From the IMG/VR virus record IMGVR_UViG_3300026518_000041, positions 1-30,860 of that record: a stretch of DNA of 30,860 nt; one strand, written 5' to 3'. Origin of the DNA: a virus. This document shows, one piece after another, positions 459 through 28,065 of the stretch. The position numbers were made by a program, and so were the translations under genes. Every line of letters starts with the position of its first letter. The first letter of the stretch is position 1. A model generated the notes under the pieces. The model had not been told where the DNA came from. It was given only the letters and a program-made list of their open reading frames with translations, and ran no database searches.

Positions 459-1160
459 ATGCAAGAACTTATACACATAAACAATACAGATGTGGTTTTC
501 AGATTAGATGATGGGCAGGTTTTTACTGACAGTTTAAATATTGCCTCTGTATTTAAAAAAAGACATCACCATGTAGTGAGAGATATTCAGAAGTTCCCTA
601 AAGATGATTTTAGCGAAACCAATTTTGGTTTGGCCTCTTATTTGGACGCTCAAGGAAAGTCAAGACCAATGTACAACATCACCAGAGACGGCTTCTCGAT
701 GCTCGTCATGGGTTTCACTGGACAAAACGCTTACAAGTGGAAAGTACAGTTCATAGAGGCGTTCAATCTCATGGAGCAGAAGTTACGAGGTACACACGCA
801 CAGCCAATGCTTGCCCAGAGCATACACGAAGAGCTGCACGAACTCAAAGAGGGCTTTGCAGAGCTAAGAGCAGAGCGTGAAGAGGTGCAGTATCAGCTAC
901 GCAAGAGTACCAACGCCATGAAACGGCTTGATTTTGCACTGGAGAACATGCCGATGGACACCTATCAACTGGCACACATACGCAAAGTAGTAGGTATGAG
1001 AGGCAAAGAGCTTGCAGAAGCTAACGGCGTGGCACTCACTACAGCCACACCTACCATCTACAGAGCACTCAACCAGAAGTTTAATGTTTACACCTACACT
1101 GAGATAAAAAGAGAGCACTACGAAGCGTGCCTTGAGTTTATCCAATACGTGACACTGTAA
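459..1160 (+). CDS. Rha family phage regulatory protein
   Basis: 233 aa. Residues about 18-108 match the Rha family: a DNA-binding-like start (ASVFKKRHHHVVRDIQKF), then NFGLASYLDAQGKSRPMYNI, TRDGFSMLVMGFTG and an AFNLMEQK helix. Rha proteins are phage regulators, first known from P22/phi-80-like phages, that interfere with phage growth or act as antirepressors. A coiled-coil linker (about 115-150) leads to a C-terminal domain (about 165-233, QLAHIRKVVGMRGKELAEANG...) that also ends the antirepressor at 27328-28065 (QLKVLRQEATDQGRILANKIG...). The two are therefore domain-swapped relatives with different N-termini. The gene sits in a promoter-operator module and is followed 9 bases later by the 77-aa gene. 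An antirepressor role is inferred. Confidence 0.8.
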   Translation: MQELIHINNTDVVFRLDDGQVFTDSLNIASVFKKRHHHVVRDIQKFPKDDFSETNFGLASYLDAQGKSRPMYNITRDGFSMLVMGFTGQNAYKWKVQFIEAFNLMEQKLRGTHAQPMLAQSIHEELHELKEGFAELRAEREEVQYQLRKSTNAMKRLDFALENMPMDTYQLAHIRKVVGMRGKELAEANGVALTTATPTIYRALNQKFNVYTYTEIKREHYEACLEFIQYVTL

Positions 1161-3669: not shown

Positions 3670-3890
3670 GTCAGAGTAAACGTATGAGCTTCTATGAAGC
3701 TTTGACCAATACAGTTCTGGGTGTGGTGATAGGGTTTTGCATCGTGTACTTTGTGCTGCCGTTTATAGGTGTGTGTGTCTCTGTAGAACAGGCGTTAAGT
3801 ACCAACGCTATGTTTGTTGTTGCTTCTACTGCTCGTGGGTATGTGGTGAGACGTGGGTTTGTTTGGTTGGGTGAGGTGTGGGGTAAATGA
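3666..3890 (+). CDS. Small membrane protein, DUF7220-like
   Basis: Start GTG 3666 in a GTGA overlap with the preceding stop; ATG 3684 is a possible later start. About 74 aa with one strong membrane segment (VLGVVIGFCIVYFVLPFIGV) and a second amphipathic or membrane stretch (NAMFVVASTARGYVVRRGF). The pattern of a TNTV start, a first membrane helix ending in PFIG, then the Ser/Ala-Arg-x-Tyr-x-x-Arg-Arg ending is that of small phage inner-membrane proteins grouped as DUF7220. Function is unknown in that family. Confidence 0.55.
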   Translation: MSQSKRMSFYEALTNTVLGVVIGFCIVYFVLPFIGVCVSVEQALSTNAMFVVASTARGYVVRRGFVWLGEVWGK

Positions 3891-4699
3891 ATCTATTTCA
3901 AAATAAAAATATATATATTGCTTCATTAAGTTTTGGCAAGGATTCTATGGCAATGGTAGATTTATTGTTAAGACACAAAAAACCGCTTGATTATATTGTT
4001 TTTAATGACACTATGTATGAGTTTCCATTTATGTATGAGTACGCTGAAAAAGTTAAAAAGTATATTTTTGATAGGTATGGTAAAGATATTGTTGTTACTA
4101 GACCTAAGGCAACCTTTGAACAATGGGCTTTAGGTGTTGCGACAAAAGGAAAAAGAGAAGGGAAAATTAGAGGGATTCCACTGCTTTACTCTAAGGATGC
4201 TCAGTGTTTTTGGAGAAGAGAAAGCAAGACTAAGCCTTATGATTTATGGATAAAAGATAATTTAAAAGGTGATTCTTATATTAAATACATTGGATTTACT
4301 ACAGATGAGATAGAAAAAAGACGATTAAATGAAGATAATGTGATTTATCCTCTTGTTGAATACTTTGATATGTCTGAAAAGGATTGTTTTGAATATTTAA
4401 GAGAAAGAGAGTTGGAAAACCCACTGTATAGGTTTTTTGAAAGAACGGGCTGCATGATGTGCCCCGCACAAAGCGACTATGCATGGTTTATGGTTTTCTC
4501 TCATTTTTTTGAGACATGGAAATGGATGGCAAAGATAGAAATGATGTTAATCGATCTTATTAAAAGAGGATATGAGGTTATTAACCCTTATTGGTTTAGT
4601 GGACACAGAACAATAAAAGATATGGAAAAACTATTTAAAAGCATAGATTCTAAGGATTTAGATACTTCATATATCAAGGATTGTATGTGTGTAATTTAA
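3887..4699 (+). CDS. Phosphoadenosine phosphosulfate reductase-like PP-loop protein
   Basis: 270 aa, ATGA overlap with the preceding gene. The PP-loop is SFGKDS at residues 15-20, which binds the phosphates of ATP or an adenylated substrate in the PAPS reductase / ATP pyrophosphatase superfamily. Further family features are TMYEFPFMYEYAEKV, a Cys near residue 107 (DAQCFWRRESKTKP), IGFTTDEIEKRR and a CxxC at Cys189/Cys192 (GCMMCPAQ), suggesting a metal or Fe-S site. Many phages carry such proteins near replication and methylation genes; a role in DNA or nucleotide modification is often proposed and unproven. The gene is visibly more AT-rich than its neighbours, so it may be a recent arrival. 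Sulfate assimilation is unlikely without other pathway genes. Confidence 0.75.
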   Translation: MNLFQNKNIYIASLSFGKDSMAMVDLLLRHKKPLDYIVFNDTMYEFPFMYEYAEKVKKYIFDRYGKDIVVTRPKATFEQWALGVATKGKREGKIRGIPLLYSKDAQCFWRRESKTKPYDLWIKDNLKGDSYIKYIGFTTDEIEKRRLNEDNVIYPLVEYFDMSEKDCFEYLRERELENPLYRFFERTGCMMCPAQSDYAWFMVFSHFFETWKWMAKIEMMLIDLIKRGYEVINPYWFSGHRTIKDMEKLFKSIDSKDLDTSYIKDCMCVI

Positions 4700-19654: not shown

Positions 19655-21631
19655 ATGCGTATAGATGATAGATTTTCTTCTACGATAGCAGTTTTGGCTC
19701 AACCACCTAAAAGCAATTTTTTATCACTGCTTGGCGATACTGCTACTAAGTATGCAGATGACCAAAAAAAAGATGCTCTTGACGAAATAAACCTCACCAA
19801 CATCAAAAACAAGGTAGCAGATGATAGAAACCTTGTCAAGTATAAAGCCCACCTGGACAATGGCGGTAATGCCAGAAGCTGGTATGAAGAGGGTAATAGT
19901 TTTTTGACCGCTGAGGGGGTGAAGATGGCTGAGGGGTTGGATAGACAGAGAATTATGGATAAGTTGCAACAAAAGAAATATGATACTGACACGAAGTATA
20001 AAAATGCAATGATTTCCGAAAATAAGCGCAAGAATGACTATGAGATGGGCTTTCCTGTGACTAAGAGTGATACGGCTATTGCGTCTGTTTCTAAAGATAA
20101 TAGTGGGAACAAAATTGTCTTGTACCCTAACGGAGAAAAACGCATAGGCGGAGATAGGAACTGGAGAAATAATAATCCTGGAAATATTGAATATGGTGAT
20201 TATGCTAAGAAACATGGTGCCATAGGTACTGATGGCCGTTTTGCTATTTTCCCGAGTATGGATGACGGATATAGTGCTCAATCCTCTTTACTTCAAACAA
20301 AAAACTATAAAAATAAAACACTTTCTGAGGCTATTAGCCGTTATGCTCCTAAAGATGAAAACAATACTCAAGCATACATAGACAGTGTTACCAAAGCTAC
20401 AGGAGTATCGGCAGACACACCTATGAGTAGCTTGGATGCATCTACATTAAATAGTATTGTTAAGGCGATGTCTCAATACGAAGGGATGAAATCAGGAGAT
20501 GTCTCAAGAGTAGAAACCCGCCAAAAGCCTGACCCTGTAAAAGCCAAACAACAAGCCCTCATAAATACTGCACTGACAAAAGAGGTGATGGGCTTAGGTG
20601 ATGGGGCGGCTAAGGCTGAGGCGTTGGGTGTGTTGAACGACCCTACCATGAGTACGGCAAACAAGGTAAAGGCTGTGAGTGCGTATGAGAGTGCGTATCC
20701 TGGACAATCTAAAACAAGATTAGGCGAAAAAGAACGCTGGATGAAAGAAAGAGCAAGATTACAATCTCTACCTAATCGAACACCAGAAGAGGATCAACAA
20801 TTACAGGACTATCAGGGTTTTATTGACAAGGCACAGTCTACTGCTATGGCAGATTTGGGAAAGTCAGATAAAGACATAGCTAAAATACTTCTTGATGAAA
20901 GAAAAAAATTACCAAAAGGACTTCAAGATGTAGCTTGGAGTGAGATAGATATGTCTACTCTTCCCAAAAGACAGAGAGATAGAATTCAGTTACGTGCTAG
21001 AAATATTGCAAGAAAATTGAGTTTAAATAATACAACAGTTCAAAAAACTATATCTAGTATTACTGCACAAAAAATAAAAGTCGAAAATGTTATGAAGTCA
21101 ACGATAGACAAAATAAATCAAGGGATAGAGTTTAATGCTATTGAAAAACCAATTAGGGATAAGCTTACGTCATATTTTGGCATGAGTGATGAGCAGGCAG
21201 AGCTTCTGTTCAGAGGTAAGCAGGCACAGTCTTTTATAAATACGTACAGACACGCATTGTTTGGTTCTTCTCTTTCTAAAACTGAAGTACCAGAGTTTTT
21301 AAAATCTGCAACGACAATGAGTCAGTCAAATCAACACATCGCTATAGCTTTTGCTTCAATGATGGAAAACCTTGTTGCTAAAGCAGACGGGGTGAGAGAA
21401 GTGATGGGGGATACACTCTTTAATCTAAATTATGGAGCATGGTACAACAATTTAAAGAAGAACCTTTCTATGTATAAAAAAGCTGTGGGGTTAAGCACAG
21501 AGAACGCTACCCCTTCTAACGAACTTATCATTTTAGGAGAAGAGACTCCTTCTGTTGCACATGAGACAAATACGGCTATCCCTACTAGCACGTATAATGT
21601 AGACTATTTTAAACAAAAGTATGGCAAATGA
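19655..21631 (+). CDS. Ejection protein with muramidase-like domain
   Basis: 658 aa. Residues about 1-155 are helical and unrecognised. At about 165-275 lies a wall-degrading domain of the kind found in virion structural proteins: NWRNNNPGNIEYG (from Asn169), GAIGTDGRFAIFPSMDDGYS, KTLSEAISRYAPKDENNTQAYI. This RNNNPGNI pattern marks phage virion-associated lytic enzymes (P5-like), which open the wall at infection. The rest is long helical linker sequence. It overlaps the next gene by an ATGA junction. It probably travels in the capsid and is injected first, acting with the 1234-aa protein. The catalytic Glu is not certain. Confidence 0.75.
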   Translation: MRIDDRFSSTIAVLAQPPKSNFLSLLGDTATKYADDQKKDALDEINLTNIKNKVADDRNLVKYKAHLDNGGNARSWYEEGNSFLTAEGVKMAEGLDRQRIMDKLQQKKYDTDTKYKNAMISENKRKNDYEMGFPVTKSDTAIASVSKDNSGNKIVLYPNGEKRIGGDRNWRNNNPGNIEYGDYAKKHGAIGTDGRFAIFPSMDDGYSAQSSLLQTKNYKNKTLSEAISRYAPKDENNTQAYIDSVTKATGVSADTPMSSLDASTLNSIVKAMSQYEGMKSGDVSRVETRQKPDPVKAKQQALINTALTKEVMGLGDGAAKAEALGVLNDPTMSTANKVKAVSAYESAYPGQSKTRLGEKERWMKERARLQSLPNRTPEEDQQLQDYQGFIDKAQSTAMADLGKSDKDIAKILLDERKKLPKGLQDVAWSEIDMSTLPKRQRDRIQLRARNIARKLSLNNTTVQKTISSITAQKIKVENVMKSTIDKINQGIEFNAIEKPIRDKLTSYFGMSDEQAELLFRGKQAQSFINTYRHALFGSSLSKTEVPEFLKSATTMSQSNQHIAIAFASMMENLVAKADGVREVMGDTLFNLNYGAWYNNLKKNLSMYKKAVGLSTENATPSNELIILGEETPSVAHETNTAIPTSTYNVDYFKQKYGK

Positions 21632-24600
21632 TAAATTTTGATAATCTGAATGAAAATGACCTAAAAGTCTTATCGGCTGTAGAAAATGGTGAGAAGGTTG
21701 ATGCTTCTCTTTTTGATGGGTTAAGTAGCGATGGACTTTCTGTGTTGCAAAAGATGGAAGCGGACAAATCATCTAAAATGCCTACCTCGTCAGAAGTTCC
21801 ACTTCCTACCCAAGACAAAGCATATTGGGATGCCCTTGAACCTGCTACGGATGAAGTGCTAGACAATCCAGATGCTTCTATCTGGGATAAAACGAAGAGA
21901 TACGCAGGTATAGTAACAGACAACATAGTAAACCTAGCAGGAACAGTTATACCTCTTCCTTTGCCTGATGCTGAGATAAGTGACTCTCCTTATACTATAC
22001 GGGCTACGGCAAATCGTGAGATAGATGCTGTAGGTAAAGATGATGCCAATTTTCAAACCTATAAATTATTTCATCAACTAGCCAATATCAAATGGGGAAC
22101 AGGTGACGATGAAGAAAATCTGAAAACTTTTTATAAAAATGCGAAACAGCTACTTGTAGATAAACTGGGGTATAAGCACTTTGCTAAACAAGGTGGTAAA
22201 TTTGTAGCAGTAGATAAAGACAACAAAGTAGTCAAGCTTGATGATAATTGGTGGAAAAGTATATTGGCTTCTACGAGAGGAGATAAGGGAGAGCTTTATG
22301 ACGGCATGATAGGTGCTACTCTTGGTGCAAAATATGGAAAAGGTGGAGCTAAAGGCAAGTTAGCATCTTCTATGGTGGGCGGTGCAGTGGGTGCGGCATT
22401 TGGAAACATTACTGACCAACTTATGTCGAGCATAGCGACTGGAGAAAAACTAAGTTTAAGACAAAGAGCAGATGAAGTCACCAAGGCTGCTGTGTTAGAT
22501 GCGGGGGGTAATCTTATTGTTGGTCATGCTGCACCGTTGATAGCCAATGGTGTAGTGGCTGGGGCTAAAGGTGTGTATAAGGCAACGACTGCGATGATAG
22601 ATGTGTTGGACAAGGCTAAGAAGTTTGATGTGAATAATTATGTTCAAAAACGTATCATCGATGATATGGCAAAACTTCCTGAAGCGGAACAAAAGAGATA
22701 TCTGGATGCTCTGGACTTTGCGAAAGAGAACAATATACAGCTTACTTCTACCTCGGTACTTGACCACCCTCAGCTTGACCAGATGGTGCAAGAGTTGGCA
22801 CGTAATCCGTTTATACGTCAAGGGGTAAAGAACTTAGAAGCTAAAAGTAGAGATAAGCTTATAAAACAAGTATTTGATGTTTTAGAAAGCGCGGGTCCCA
22901 AGGCTACGGCTGAAGAGCTGGACCCACTGCTCAAACAAGAGCTGGGCGATGCACTGGGCAAACGTAATGCTACAGTGAGACACCTTTATGATGATTTTGA
23001 ACATAAGGTGAGCGGTGAAGTGGTCACAAAAGCCAAGAAGCTTACAGAAGATTTAGCCTCTATAGGTGACAAATACGGTTTTAAAGAAGGGGGAAAGATA
23101 CTCGATGAAGAAGTAGCTGCTGCGGATGCGTATGTAAAAAAGATACTTAACCCTAGAATACGAAACAACACACTTGATGCCAAGGTACTAGACAAGATAA
23201 GTTCAAACTTCGGGAAGCGTGCGAGTGCATACAAGATGAATAATCCTAAGCTCTATGCGTACTACAACGAAGCCAAAGGGCTTGTGGATAGTGAAATACA
23301 AAAGGTAAGTGCTTACGAGGGTGACGATGTGGCTCAGGCACTCAACGTGGCACGTAAGGCCTATAAGGAAAAAGTAAACATCTATGGAAACAAAAGTGAA
23401 TACTCTGAAATACGCAAGGCGATGGAGAGTGACAGACCCAATGAGGCTATAGCTTCACTGCTTAAAGGCGACAAAGGGCTTGACAATGCCAATATGCTAA
23501 AGCAAGAGTTAGGTGGTAGTGAGTCTGGTGATGCACTTATAGGGGCGTTGGGTAGAAAAGAGCTTGATGATGCTCTAGCGAATGTAAATATGAAGTCGCC
23601 TAGCTCTTTAGCTAAGGTTCTCTCTTCTGACAAGATGAAAGTGGCTAAACGCTTGTTGGGTGAAGCGTCTAGTAAAAAGCTTGATGATATAGCAACACTC
23701 TTTGAGATGATGGGACGTACCGAGAAACTACTCTCTGGTGCTGGGTCTGAGATAGCGTCTGCAAGTGCTGCTTCTTTGCCGATTAAGATTATGCATGGTA
23801 TAGAAAAGCTGATGGTGCGGTTACAACAAAAACGACTGTTTGGTAAAGTGTTTGACAACACGCTTGCACAGGAGATGTTGCACAAAACACTTAAGGCTTC
23901 ACAAGATGCGAGTACACCAAGAGAGTTTAAAGTCGTAGATAACTTTTTAAAAAGAACCGCGAGAACGATAGAAAAAGAGACGGGTGAGGACTTTTCTGAC
24001 ATCTACGACAAACGCAAGATACAAAAGGCCGCTATAGTAGAACGTAAAGCCAAAGAGGCAGAGGCAGAGGCACTTAAGCGTGAAGTAAAAACCTTTAAAG
24101 TGCCAGAGCTTGCAGAACTGCGAGCCGTGGGTAAGACTGCGAACAATGAAGACGTGGTACTGCTCAATCATTCTATAGGACGCATACAGCAAGGTACGCA
24201 AACACCTGTAGATGTAGAACGGTACATTAAGGCTAGAAAGTCTTTAGATGAGGATACCTTTTTTAAAGCCTATGAAAAAGAGAAGGTGCTAGAACTACCT
24301 GCTAAGTACAGGACTGAAAACATACCTGAGTCAGTAGCGAACATCAAAGAGCTTAGAGACTATCTGATGAGTAACCCTGAGCTAAAGTATGGTAATGAGT
24401 TAAGCCCTGCTTCTGTCAATGCTTTGGTACGTGACCTAGAAGAAGAGGGTGTACCTAGAAGCATGGCACACGATACACTCTATGATGAGCTTAAGTCTAT
24501 GCACGCGGCGTTAAAAGACCGTATAGATGAAGCATATACCCCCAAACAAACCGCCTCAACCGAACACGTACTTGAAGAGCCGTTAGATGCCAATGGTAAT

Positions 24601-25332
24601 GCACTGTTTGCTAAAGGGATGGATCACCTTTTAGTAGGTGGAGTGGCTGGTGTGAGTGAAGATGAAAATGGAAACATAACTTTTGACCCCGAGAGGTTCA
24701 TACTAGGTATGGGTGGTTATACTGCGGTGAAGGCTTTGGCTAAGAACCCACGCGTAAGACAAGAGGTGAAGGACTTGGCTTTGTTTGCTTTGGAGAAAGC
24801 AGGTAACAAATTAGAAGGGTCTGTCTTTGATACGCGTTCATTTATGGCTCCTCTTGAATCGTTTGGGCGTAACTTTGCTAAATATAAGTCAGAACCTAAA
24901 AAGGCCATAGCCAAACTCATGAAAGAAAAAAATGGTCAAGTCAAAGGTGCTCTGTATCATCCTTCATTAGGAGAGATAGACTTAGTATGGGGGAAAGTTT
25001 TAGACCCTAAAGAACATACTGGGTATGGACTTGCTCACATCATCGATAAGCATGGTGAGGAGGTAGCGAAGAGACTTGATGACATTGTTATGGGTGGAAA
25101 GATAATTGAGGCAAAAGGTAACAGAGTTGTTTTAGAGAATGGTGATGACTTAGGTGTCGTTGCGATGAGATGGAATAAAGAAGATAAGAACTGGGTAATT
25201 TCAGCTTATGAGCCTGAGAAGCAGATTTCTACCGATGCTTCTACTTTGGCTGGGGAATCGGATAATCTATCCCCAAAGGCTGAGTTTAGTATAGCACAGA
25301 ATACAAAGAATGTCAAAAAGGACACCAAATGA
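21628..25332 (+). CDS. Giant ejection protein with C-terminal PBECR-like nuclease domain
   Basis: 1234 aa, largest gene here. A Gly/Ala-rich hydrophobic stretch at about 224-265 (GMIGATLGAKYGKGGAKGKL, SSMVGGAVGAAFGN) could insert into membranes; residues 290-1000 are mostly helical with coiled coils, as in podovirus internal virion proteins. At about 1103-1195 is a compact domain: GALYHPSLGEIDLVWG (Asp118 of the last kilobase, i.e. residue 1118, and Trp1121), GYGLAHIIDKHGEEV (His1137, His1142), then VVAMRWNKEDKNWVISAYE. It matches the phage Barnase-EndoU-ColicinE5/D-RelE-like (PBECR) nuclease pattern found at the ends of MuF and other injected phage proteins. A short low-complexity tail follows. 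Delivery of an RNase into the new host is inferred. No immunity gene is evident beside it. Confidence 0.75.
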   Translation: MINFDNLNENDLKVLSAVENGEKVDASLFDGLSSDGLSVLQKMEADKSSKMPTSSEVPLPTQDKAYWDALEPATDEVLDNPDASIWDKTKRYAGIVTDNIVNLAGTVIPLPLPDAEISDSPYTIRATANREIDAVGKDDANFQTYKLFHQLANIKWGTGDDEENLKTFYKNAKQLLVDKLGYKHFAKQGGKFVAVDKDNKVVKLDDNWWKSILASTRGDKGELYDGMIGATLGAKYGKGGAKGKLASSMVGGAVGAAFGNITDQLMSSIATGEKLSLRQRADEVTKAAVLDAGGNLIVGHAAPLIANGVVAGAKGVYKATTAMIDVLDKAKKFDVNNYVQKRIIDDMAKLPEAEQKRYLDALDFAKENNIQLTSTSVLDHPQLDQMVQELARNPFIRQGVKNLEAKSRDKLIKQVFDVLESAGPKATAEELDPLLKQELGDALGKRNATVRHLYDDFEHKVSGEVVTKAKKLTEDLASIGDKYGFKEGGKILDEEVAAADAYVKKILNPRIRNNTLDAKVLDKISSNFGKRASAYKMNNPKLYAYYNEAKGLVDSEIQKVSAYEGDDVAQALNVARKAYKEKVNIYGNKSEYSEIRKAMESDRPNEAIASLLKGDKGLDNANMLKQELGGSESGDALIGALGRKELDDALANVNMKSPSSLAKVLSSDKMKVAKRLLGEASSKKLDDIATLFEMMGRTEKLLSGAGSEIASASAASLPIKIMHGIEKLMVRLQQKRLFGKVFDNTLAQEMLHKTLKASQDASTPREFKVVDNFLKRTARTIEKETGEDFSDIYDKRKIQKAAIVERKAKEAEAEALKREVKTFKVPELAELRAVGKTANNEDVVLLNHSIGRIQQGTQTPVDVERYIKARKSLDEDTFFKAYEKEKVLELPAKYRTENIPESVANIKELRDYLMSNPELKYGNELSPASVNALVRDLEEEGVPRSMAHDTLYDELKSMHAALKDRIDEAYTPKQTASTEHVLEEPLDANGNALFAKGMDHLLVGGVAGVSEDENGNITFDPERFILGMGGYTAVKALAKNPRVRQEVKDLALFALEKAGNKLEGSVFDTRSFMAPLESFGRNFAKYKSEPKKAIAKLMKEKNGQVKGALYHPSLGEIDLVWGKVLDPKEHTGYGLAHIIDKHGEEVAKRLDDIVMGGKIIEAKGNRVVLENGDDLGVVAMRWNKEDKNWVISAYEPEKQISTDASTLAGESDNLSPKAEFSIAQNTKNVKKDTK

Positions 25333-27032
25333 CAAAACAACAACGCATAAACTACCTACAAGACATTTGGGATGAGGCGGTAAAACTTACTTGGCACTCA
25401 CGCAGAGAAGCCAGAGAGATGTACGAGTATCTACGTGGTAATCAACTCCCCGATGATGTCATCGCTACGTTAGAGAGTAGAGGACAGCCTATACAGTGGG
25501 AAAATGTGATACAAGAGATAGACACATCCATAGAGGGGATGAAGCTCATGACGCGTACAGAGCTTAGTCTCACGAACCGCCACCCTGAAGATGAAGAGCG
25601 TGTGAAGGTGATGGAGAGCATACACAAATCTACACTGGATGCGCCTGAGTGGTGGGAAAACAAGGCACGCTCTGACTTGGACTTGCGTATAGTGGGACTT
25701 TCTGCTATAGAGACAGTACTTGTGAACATGGATGAGTTTGATGGTCAAGGTAAACGGCTTAGAGAGATGAGGCACGACTACTTGCCTGCGTTAGAGTGTT
25801 ATATAGATATGTACAGCCGTAAAACTGACTACTCTGATGCAAGATACTTCCATCATAGCCGAATGTATGACAAAAAAACATTGGTACGAAAATTTGGTGC
25901 CGAAGCCAAGAAGCTTGAGGAAGATAACTACGGCATGTGTAGAGTAACACGTACATGGTACAGAGATGGGGACACGATACGCATCGCGACATGGTATGGT
26001 GATGTAGTGCTTGAAGATATAGCGCAACCATACACGAAGACCAAAGGCAGATTTTCAGTGGCAGTAAGACGTACCAAGATTACGCATGTTCGAGAGTACG
26101 TAGGGATGTACCGAAACGTCAAACCTTTCCAAGACAAGATAAACAACATGATGTTAAGACTCATCAACATGCTAGGCTCTTCTAAACTGCTTGTGGAAGC
26201 TTCAGCAGTGGCAGACATAGACGTGTTTCAAGAAGAGTACAGTATGGACAACTCAGTGACGGTGGTAAACGACGGTACGTTGAAAGACAAACGCATACAA
26301 GACATACGCTTGACTAACGACATTACACAGCTTATGAGTCTGGTACAGGATGCGAGGCGTAAGGCATTGCAGATTATGGGGCTGAACCCTGAGCTACTAG
26401 GTACAAGTACCATCCGACAAAGTGGTGTAGCGTTGGAAATAAAGCAGAATGCAGGCTTAGTAGGGTTACAGAAGTTTCTTACTACAAGTACAGAGATGGA
26501 CAAGGACTTGCTAGAGTTAGACTCTGGCATCATGCAGCAGTATTTTACAGCAGAGCAAGTCTTTTCCATCACTGGGCGTGAGGGAGTCAAGGAACATTTC
26601 TACCTAAACGAGTACGAACGTGATGCTACTGGACGTGTGATGTTTAAAGATGGTGTCCCTATGCAGCAAAACATCCTTTTTGTCGGGCGTTATGACCTTA
26701 CCATAGACCAAGTGCCATTCAACAATGGAAGTTCAGATGCCAAGATGAAGTCATGGGCTGAGATGATGAAGATTATCCCACCAGAGAAAGCAGCAGCTCT
26801 CATACCTAGTATGCTTAGAGATGTAGGCTCTGCACAAGCAGATGAGACAAGAGACATACTAGCTAAGTTAGATGCACAGGCAGCGCAAGCCCCACAAGGT
26901 GAAGACCCTGCGATGCAACAGATGAAGCTACAGATGCAGACTATGCAAGCGAAGATAGAAGAGATGGTGTCTAAGGCGAACTTGAACAATGCTAAGGCTG
27001 GGGAGATAGCAGGAAGTAAAGGTACTGAATAG
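25329..27032 (+). CDS. Portal protein (podovirus type)
   Basis: 567 aa, ATGA overlap with the preceding gene. It shows the order typical of P22/N4-like portals: an N-terminal helical region (RREAREMYEYLRGNQLPDDV), WWENKARSDLDLRIVGLSAIETV, a wing with YVGMYRNVKPFQDKINNMML, then QIMGLNPELLGTSTIRQSGV and the long stem/crown helix EIKQNAGLVGLQKFL. The C-terminus is Gln/Met-rich (MQQMKLQMQTMQAKIEEMV), like the helical barrel. The portal ring is the DNA entry and exit pore for TerL. Its place after the ejection proteins, 17 kb from terL, is unusual. The next gene converges on it. Confidence 0.85.
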   Translation: MTKQQRINYLQDIWDEAVKLTWHSRREAREMYEYLRGNQLPDDVIATLESRGQPIQWENVIQEIDTSIEGMKLMTRTELSLTNRHPEDEERVKVMESIHKSTLDAPEWWENKARSDLDLRIVGLSAIETVLVNMDEFDGQGKRLREMRHDYLPALECYIDMYSRKTDYSDARYFHHSRMYDKKTLVRKFGAEAKKLEEDNYGMCRVTRTWYRDGDTIRIATWYGDVVLEDIAQPYTKTKGRFSVAVRRTKITHVREYVGMYRNVKPFQDKINNMMLRLINMLGSSKLLVEASAVADIDVFQEEYSMDNSVTVVNDGTLKDKRIQDIRLTNDITQLMSLVQDARRKALQIMGLNPELLGTSTIRQSGVALEIKQNAGLVGLQKFLTTSTEMDKDLLELDSGIMQQYFTAEQVFSITGREGVKEHFYLNEYERDATGRVMFKDGVPMQQNILFVGRYDLTIDQVPFNNGSSDAKMKSWAEMMKIIPPEKAAALIPSMLRDVGSAQADETRDILAKLDAQAAQAPQGEDPAMQQMKLQMQTMQAKIEEMVSKANLNNAKAGEIAGSKGTE

Positions 27033-27327: not shown

Positions 27328-28065
27328 CTACAGTTCTACTGTGCGTAAAAAAGACATAGCTGCATAGTATCTCTCACGTGGTATTTCGTGGTAACTGCTT
27401 ACGTCAAAGTGTTTGTTTAGCTTTATAAACACCGCAGGGATGGCAGACTCCGAACTGATGCCTATCTTGTTTGCTAGTATGCGTCCCTGGTCTGTTGCTT
27501 CTTGTCTAAGTACTTTAAGCTGGTCTTTGTCTAGTGGTAGGTTCTGTATAACCTCTGTAGCCGTGTCTATGACCGCTGTGGCTTTTTGTAAGTAAAACCC
27601 TGCTCTTTTATGTTCTAGCTGATAGCTGTCGAACTTCTCTTCAAAGGCGTTGAGTCTAGTGTCTATGTGGGCGGTGAGTTCTTCTTTTATCCCGTCTAGG
27701 GCTAAAGTGTTGCCTTTTAGCTGTGCTATGTAGTCCCTCTCTATCTTGATGAAGTGGTCACGATAGGCTTTTGCTTTTTTGCTTTGGCTCATCATGGCGA
27801 TGTGCTTTGCAGACTCTATGGTGAGGAGGTACTCTTTTTTATATTTTGCACCAGATACCTGCTCGTCCTTTTGGGTGAGCAGGGCAAAATCTTTGTTTTC
27901 TTCTAGGTCAGCTCTTCTGATTTGGGCCTTTATCCAACCGCTGAAGTCTTTAGAAACATTTAGTCCATCATGTAAGTCTCTAGCATTTACACTATTAGCT
28001 TCTTGCCCGCCTATGTGGCTAGGTATAATTTGAATTAGTGGTGAATGTTGTGTGGGTGTGTTCAT
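27328..28065 (-). CDS. AntA/AntB-type antirepressor
   Basis: 245 aa with AAAGGA upstream. Residues about 20-110 match the AntA/AntB antirepressor domain: VNARDLHDGLNVSKDFSGWI, ENKDFALLTQKDEQ, KKEYLLTIESAKHIAMMSQS, KAYRDHFIKIERDY. A coiled-coil middle leads to the C-terminal domain shared with the Rha-type protein at 459-1160 (about 180-245, QLKVLRQEATDQGRILANKIG, SAIPAVFIKLNKHFDV). Antirepressors of this kind bind and disable phage repressors. It has its own promoter at 28110-28138 set among repeated CGATTATT boxes. As the CI-like repressor lacks a self-cleavage domain, this protein is the likely trigger of induction. Confidence 0.8.
   Translation of the reverse strand: MNTPTQHSPLIQIIPSHIGGQEANSVNARDLHDGLNVSKDFSGWIKAQIRRADLEENKDFALLTQKDEQVSGAKYKKEYLLTIESAKHIAMMSQSKKAKAYRDHFIKIERDYIAQLKGNTLALDGIKEELTAHIDTRLNAFEEKFDSYQLEHKRAGFYLQKATAVIDTATEVIQNLPLDKDQLKVLRQEATDQGRILANKIGISSESAIPAVFIKLNKHFDVSSYHEIPRERYYAAMSFLRTVEL

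What the first reader, a model, noticed from the sequence alone, without database searches (positions are those of the whole stretch)
24934..25212. Toxin-type nuclease domain at the tip of a 1234-aa injected protein
Residues 1103-1195 show the PBECR pattern (GEIDLVWG, GYGLAHIIDKHGEEV, a final strand pair ending ISAYE), a fold related to Barnase, EndoU and RelE-like RNases. Fused to an ejection protein it would enter the new host with the DNA, perhaps cutting host RNA, disabling rivals or acting in defence. No immunity gene is next to it, so control of its activity in the producing cell, for example by packaging or cleavage, is an open question. This is the strongest candidate here for an undescribed effector system.
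Basis: partly seen in the sequence, partly recalled or inferred. Interest (0 to 1): 0.8.

Follow-up and report, generated by a model that had tools for sequence, protein, structure and literature searches.

The report
Predicted RNase on phage ejection protein
A temperate phage, probably of a Campylobacterota host, carries on the end of a DNA-ejection protein a predicted RNA-cutting domain (PBECR1) that is probably injected into the next cell; this kind of injected effector was already described in 2017, so it is a good but ordinary example, still without any laboratory test.

Summary
ORF 21628-25332 (1234 aa) ends in a PBECR1 domain (Pfam PF18809, residues 1108-1199, E 1.5e-18, 67.7 bits against a cut-off of 27.6). 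The conserved unit is wider than reported: residues ~1075-1200. The residues that define a PBECR active site are intact: His in the helix (H1137, H1142) and Ser/Thr in the last strand (S1192; S or T in 164 of 164 aligned copies). The predicted fold is helices plus a four-strand sheet, and the best solved-structure matches are mostly RelE-type toxins and T4 RegB, each weak.

The protein lies between a transglycosylase-like ejection gene and a P22-type portal gene. Its body is homologous to the large ejection/polyvalent proteins of Helicobacter phages and, through them, Campylobacter phages. In that family one body carries varying C-terminal loads (PBECR1, PBECR2, PBECR3, ddrB-ParB, ART, none), sometimes with an out-of-frame PBECR1 remnant downstream.

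"Undescribed effector system" is not supported: Iyer et al. 2017 defined PBECR, its virion delivery and predicted RNase role, and noted the Helicobacter mosaicism. No immunity gene adjoins; solo PBECR1 genes in Bacteroidales lack a conserved partner too. Best reading: an early-acting injected RNase for counter-defence or takeover; target unknown.

The parts
21628..25332 (+). 1234-aa ejection-type protein with C-terminal PBECR1 domain
   Evidence: ORF; Pfam hit; body homology
21955..24297 (+). body (residues ~110-890) shared with ejection/polyvalent proteins of other Campylobacterota phages
   Evidence: BLASTP to L202 over residues 114-886, E 8e-23; held-out profile without the window finds it at E 1.2e-18, strongest at residues 161-321 and 751-1027; no hit in 1489 reversed proteins
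22300..22413 (+). glycine-zipper-like hydrophobic segment (residues ~225-262), the most conserved part of the body
   Evidence: invariant G229, A253, G255, G259, D263 in 18 homologues; relative L206 has a sub-threshold match to the glycine-zipper 2TM domain
24580..24816 (+). linker motif (residues 985-1063), LFxKGxDxLLVGxxAGVxxDENGxITFDPExFxLGxGGY, lying directly before the effector
   Evidence: recurs in about 20 related proteins (some overlapping fetches), often near effector modules
24850..25227 (+). PBECR1 domain, full conserved extent (residues 1075-1200)
   Evidence: Pfam, 171-sequence alignment, model with core pLDDT above 90
25036..25038 (+). codon of H1137 (helix; H in 107 and K in 61 of 169 copies)
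25051..25053 (+). codon of H1142 (helix; H in 153 and R in 14 of 168 copies)
25201..25203 (+). codon of S1192 (last strand; T in 148 and S in 16 of 164 copies)
19655..21631 (+). 658-aa companion ejection protein with a transglycosylase/lysozyme-like region
   Evidence: PHROG hits incl. tail injection transglycosylase; residues 133-295 are 57.6% identical to a Sulfurovum protein that also carries PBECR1
25329..27032 (+). P22-type portal protein, start overlapping the stop of the effector gene
   Evidence: Pfam P22_portal E 1.4e-78; the same effector-portal adjacency in L203 (G352) and L082

Best explanation
The protein is one of the DNA-ejection proteins of a temperate P22-portal podovirus of (inferred) Campylobacterota. 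Its C-terminal ~125-residue PBECR1 domain has an intact predicted active site. The protein is made late, packaged in the head, and leaves with or before the DNA. In the new cell the PBECR1 domain acts as a metal-independent endoribonuclease early in infection. Its most likely job is counter-defence or takeover: cutting an RNA that hinders the phage (a defence RNA such as crRNA, or selected host mRNA), rather than killing the host. No dedicated immunity gene is needed because the late gene is silent in lysogens and, in lytic growth, the product appears when the cell is doomed and is sequestered in virions. Shown: domain identity, intact residues, predicted fold type, gene context, shared body, varying tails. 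Inferred: packaging, delivery, catalysis, target, and why immunity is absent.
For: Pfam PBECR1 E 1.5e-18. S/T1192 in 164/164, H1142 in 153/168, G1134 in 169/169, D1118 in 155/168. The model (pLDDT 83.5, core above 90) has helices at 1134-1156 followed by four strands, with H1137 and H1142 in the helix and S1192 in the last strand, as the family definition requires (definition). Of the ten best PDB fold matches, nine are RelE-type or other toxin-antitoxin entries or T4 RegB, though E is only 0.1-1. BFVD gives nine viral matches at E below 1e-4, mostly phage proteins. The gene sits between a transglycosylase-like ejection gene and the portal. The body is homologous to Helicobacter and other Campylobacterota ejection-type proteins, and the order effector gene then portal recurs in L203 and L082. 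Tails vary on the family body. Delivery and predicted role are published for this class.
Against: No experimental study of any PBECR1 was found in the literature held. Single fold matches to solved RNases are individually weak, and no PDB sequence relative exists. The RNA target is unknown. Packaging is inferred from gene order and homology only. Body homology to the window is strongest in two segments and weak between them.
Confidence: 0.6

Rival explanations
1. An anti-competitor toxin: the injected RNase slows or kills newly infected or newly lysogenised rival cells, as proposed for MuF toxins, giving the lysogen population an advantage.
For: A conserved delivery body with varying C-terminal effectors, and out-of-frame PBECR1 remnants downstream of a shorter gene in some Campylobacter prophages, resemble polymorphic toxins. 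MuF toxins are the published model.
Against: No immunity gene next to it (89.4% of MuF toxin genes have a small downstream ORF). A phage gains little from killing the cell it needs. Solo PBECR1 genes persist in Bacteroidales chromosomes without a conserved partner.
Confidence: 0.17
2. A RegB-like regulator: the injected RNase trims early phage or host mRNA to time gene expression.
For: T4 RegB is among the best fold matches, and Iyer et al. raise this option.
Against: Turnover of effector modules between close phages fits an arms race better than a core regulatory step.
Confidence: 0.12
3. A structural or RNA-binding domain without catalysis, as Iyer et al. suggest for Mu gp30.
For: The window has Ser rather than the commoner Thr at 1192, and several other positions differ from consensus.
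Against: H1137, H1142, D1118 and an allowed Ser are all kept; 16 of 164 distinct copies have Ser. Some Campylobacter prophages encode a body that ends without an in-frame PBECR1, so the domain is unlikely to be structural.
Confidence: 0.08
4. Defence of the lysogen: the domain protects the carrier cell against other invaders.
For: Solo PBECR1 genes conserved in Bacteroidales chromosomes hint that cells can keep the domain for their own use.
Against: Here it is fused to a late virion-type protein that a quiet lysogen is not expected to make.
Confidence: 0.03

Closest known systems
PBECR1 (Pfam PF18809) in phage polyvalent proteins, Iyer et al. 2017
   Same: Sequence family, His plus Ser/Thr active site, helix plus four-strand core, position in a late virion-type gene, expected injection
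   Different: Only one recognised effector domain here, close to the C-terminus, instead of several in a giant protein; the host is probably an environmental member of Campylobacterota
Helicobacter jhp1044-type (DUF3519) and Campylobacter prophage ejection-like proteins (e.g. L082, L008, L018, L026)
   Same: Homologous body, PBECR1 modules, portal next door in L082
   Different: Relatives carry other or more modules (four PBECR1 plus ddrB-ParB in L082; PBECR2, ddrB-ParB and PBECR1 in L026)
MuF polymorphic toxins (Jamet et al. 2017)
   Same: Phage-encoded structural N-terminus with a C-terminal toxin-type domain
   Different: No MuF domain and no small immunity-like ORF downstream
RelE-type toxins and T4 RegB
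   Same: Predicted fold, remote
   Different: No detectable sequence similarity, no antitoxin gene, part of a large virion-type protein

Membership tests
PBECR1 (PF18809) | Score above Pfam gathering cut-off over the full profile | tested here: met
   67.7 bits against 27.6, profile 1-103/104
[quoted passage not shown]
   H1137, H1142, S1192 (definition)
[quoted passage not shown]
   AlphaFold2 model, core pLDDT above 90; best PDB matches mostly RelE/RegB but each weak
PBECR1 (PF18809) | Endoribonuclease activity | not testable with these tools
   predicted only; no experimental paper found in the library
Campylobacterota phage ejection/polyvalent protein family (Helicobacter jhp1044 type) | Homologous N-terminal body | tested here: met
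   held-out profile E 1.2e-18, 0 hits in reversed proteins; jhp1044 itself was not tested directly
Polyvalent protein (Iyer et al.) | Two or more effector or associated domains in one polypeptide | tested here: inconclusive
   only PBECR1 is recognised by Pfam here; relatives with the same body have several
MuF polymorphic toxin | N-terminal MuF domain | tested here: not met
   no MuF family hit in the Pfam scan up to E 1
MuF polymorphic toxin / polymorphic toxin | Small immunity gene directly downstream | tested here: not met
   the portal gene overlaps the stop codon

The most novel reading that the evidence does not exclude
Campylobacterota temperate phages share a polymorphic ejection-protein system: a conserved delivery body plus linker onto which RNase and other effector cassettes are swapped, sometimes leaving PBECR1 remnants behind, and working without immunity genes because the cassettes act only in newly entered cells against defence RNAs. 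Part of this (mosaicism, virion context) is published; the immunity-free cassette logic and the defence target are not shown.
Probability: 0.25. Interest if true: 0.55.

Novelty: new member of a known kind. Interest (0 to 1): 0.3.

Why it matters
PBECR domains are predicted to be among the commonest effectors that phages inject (about a quarter of polyvalent proteins), yet I found no experimental study of one in the literature held. A compact protein with a single PBECR1 near its end is a simple test case for whether injected RNases target host mRNA, CRISPR RNA or other defence RNA, and for how phages carry such domains without immunity genes.

Tried and rejected
Searches with the body alone as a single sequence gave nothing in phages or genome contigs, nor did the whole protein in viral contigs; six-frame search of 397 Campylobacterota genomes did find relatives. 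The portal as a single-sequence query found nothing in viral contigs. Profile search of PDB sequences gave only chance matches. A profile from Campylobacter bodies alone does not reach the window at E 0.01, so that link is transitive through Helicobacter-type and G352 proteins. I considered an antitoxin next to solo Bacteroidales PBECR1 genes: in 29 loci surveyed no ordinary coding neighbour is shared by more than four, and those groups include closely similar regions; the nine-locus cluster looks like translated intergenic repeats. I considered that the 129-residue Campylobacter ORFs are independent genes: they lack an in-frame ATG before the conserved domain and sit after a diverged, shorter body, so they look like remnants.

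Full report
What is there. The window is a 30,860-base virus record that reads as a temperate podovirus: integrase, CI-type repressor and AntA anti-repressor at the right end; in the left and middle part a DnaB-type helicase, terminase, capsid, tail fibre, holin and endolysin; then a transglycosylase-like ejection gene (19655-21631), the 1234-aa ORF (21628-25332) and a P22-type portal (25329-27032). The terminase and portal are closest to those of Helicobacter prophages at about 30% identity, and the best relatives of the PBECR1 domain are a Campylobacterota MAG (L089, 46-49%) and, further off, Sulfurovum, Campylobacter and Helicobacter. The host is therefore inferred to be a member of Campylobacterota; this was not tested directly.

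Residues 1108-1199 match PBECR1 (PF18809) at E 1.5e-18 over essentially the whole profile. An alignment of 171 distinct copies from phages and genomes shows that the conserved unit begins near residue 1075. It also shows the pattern expected of an active enzyme: Ser/Thr at 1192 in 164 of 164 copies (Ser in 16), His at 1142 in 153 of 168 (Arg in 14, which recalls the published sixth PBECR family), G1134 invariant, D1118 in 155 of 168. The window has every one of these.

Fold. AlphaFold2 on an 83-sequence alignment of residues 1065-1211 gave pLDDT 83.5 with the core above 90. An N-terminal helix and strands lead into helices at 1134-1156, then four strands at 1158-1194. H1137 and H1142 lie in the first helix of that core and S1192 in the last strand, which is the published BECR configuration. 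Foldseek against the PDB returns RelE-type and other toxin-antitoxin entries and T4 RegB as nine of its first ten hits, but individually at E 0.1-1. In BFVD, nine viral proteins match at E below 1e-4. I treat the RNase-group fold as well supported by family, residues and topology together, not by any single structural hit.

The carrier protein. As a single sequence the body finds nothing in the phage collection, but in 397 Campylobacterota genomes it matches 34. The nearest is genome G352, in which the homologue (L202 and L203, split over two contigs, so the join is inferred) runs body, PBECR1, linker, further tail and then directly a portal gene. A profile built without the window finds the window body at E 1.2e-18, with no hit for the body profile in 1489 reversed proteins; the same held-out profile finds an H. 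pylori phage protein (L008) at 1e-201 and Campylobacter prophage proteins at about 1e-16 to 1e-19. So one ejection-type body is spread through phages of this phylum, most conserved at a glycine-zipper-like segment.

Exchange of the tail. Among 18 proteins with this body, Pfam finds PBECR1 in 14, ddrB-ParB in 7, PBECR2 in 6, PBECR3 in 3, and ART, LPD3 and helicase or methylase domains in a few. These 18 are not independent and were partly fetched through PBECR1, so the counts are descriptive. Within Campylobacter prophages the same body carries PBECR1 alone (L018, 1210 aa), PBECR2 plus ddrB-ParB plus PBECR1 (L026, 1663 aa), or ends without PBECR1, which is left downstream as an out-of-frame remnant (L023, L025, L099). 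In Sulfurovum a single polypeptide joins a region 57.6% identical to the neighbouring window gene 19655-21631 with PBECR1, PBECR3 and ART. A linker motif (residues 985-1063 here) recurs in these proteins, often near effector modules. PBECR1 itself occurs in 87 of 397 Campylobacterota genomes and in none of 14 control genomes.

Immunity. None adjoins: both neighbouring genes overlap the ORF by a few bases. Solo PBECR1 genes of about 140 aa with intact His and Ser/Thr sit at scattered chromosomal sites in Bacteroidales MAGs, one or two per genome in those checked, again without a conserved partner. This argues that PBECR1 is not a broadly lethal RNase that always needs a paired inhibitor.

Mechanism. 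Most likely the domain is injected with the DNA and cuts selected RNA early in infection, for counter-defence or takeover. Packaging, injection, catalysis and target are inference from gene order, homology, intact residues and the published argument. Absence of immunity is explained by late expression in a doomed cell and silence in the lysogen (inference).

Comparison with the known. Iyer et al. 2017 (PMC5512222) defined PBECR, its active site, its presence in virion-associated phage proteins including portal and MuF fusions, and the mosaic Helicobacter family, and proposed mRNA or CRISPR RNA targets. MuF toxins (PMC5576092) are a parallel system, but the window protein has neither the MuF domain nor a downstream small ORF. 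The finding is therefore a new, compact member of a known kind.

Noticed in passing
L107-L154 (Bacteroidales MAGs), e.g. L126:8977-9399: Solo ~140-aa PBECR1 genes, well conserved with intact active-site residues, at scattered chromosomal sites without a conserved neighbour; possibly adopted by the host. In L126 two copies lie in tandem.
   Followed up: partly
L023, L025, L028, L029, L036, L099 versus L018, L026 (Campylobacter prophages): Ejection-type gene with varying effector load; in some prophages PBECR1 survives only as an out-of-frame remnant downstream of a diverged, shorter body.
   Followed up: partly
L131 (Sulfurovum MAG contig): One polypeptide joins a transglycosylase-like region 57.6% identical to window gene 19655-21631 with PBECR1, PBECR3 and ART-PolyVal.
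   Followed up: partly
window 24580-24816 and related proteins: Recurring linker LLVGxxAGVxxDENGxITFDPExFxLGxGGY, two hydrophobic stretches around an acidic EF-hand-like loop, often near effector modules; role unknown.
   Followed up: partly
L023:9462-10784 and L025:9462-10784: An MFS-transporter-like gene (440 aa, judged by eye from its N-terminus) follows the PBECR1 remnant inside Campylobacter prophages.
   Followed up: no
window 459-1160 and 27328-28065: Two anti-repressor-type genes at opposite ends of the record, sharing PHROG anti-repressor family matches.
   Followed up: no
window 3887-4699: Phosphoadenosine phosphosulfate reductase-like gene, a common phage auxiliary gene.
   Followed up: no
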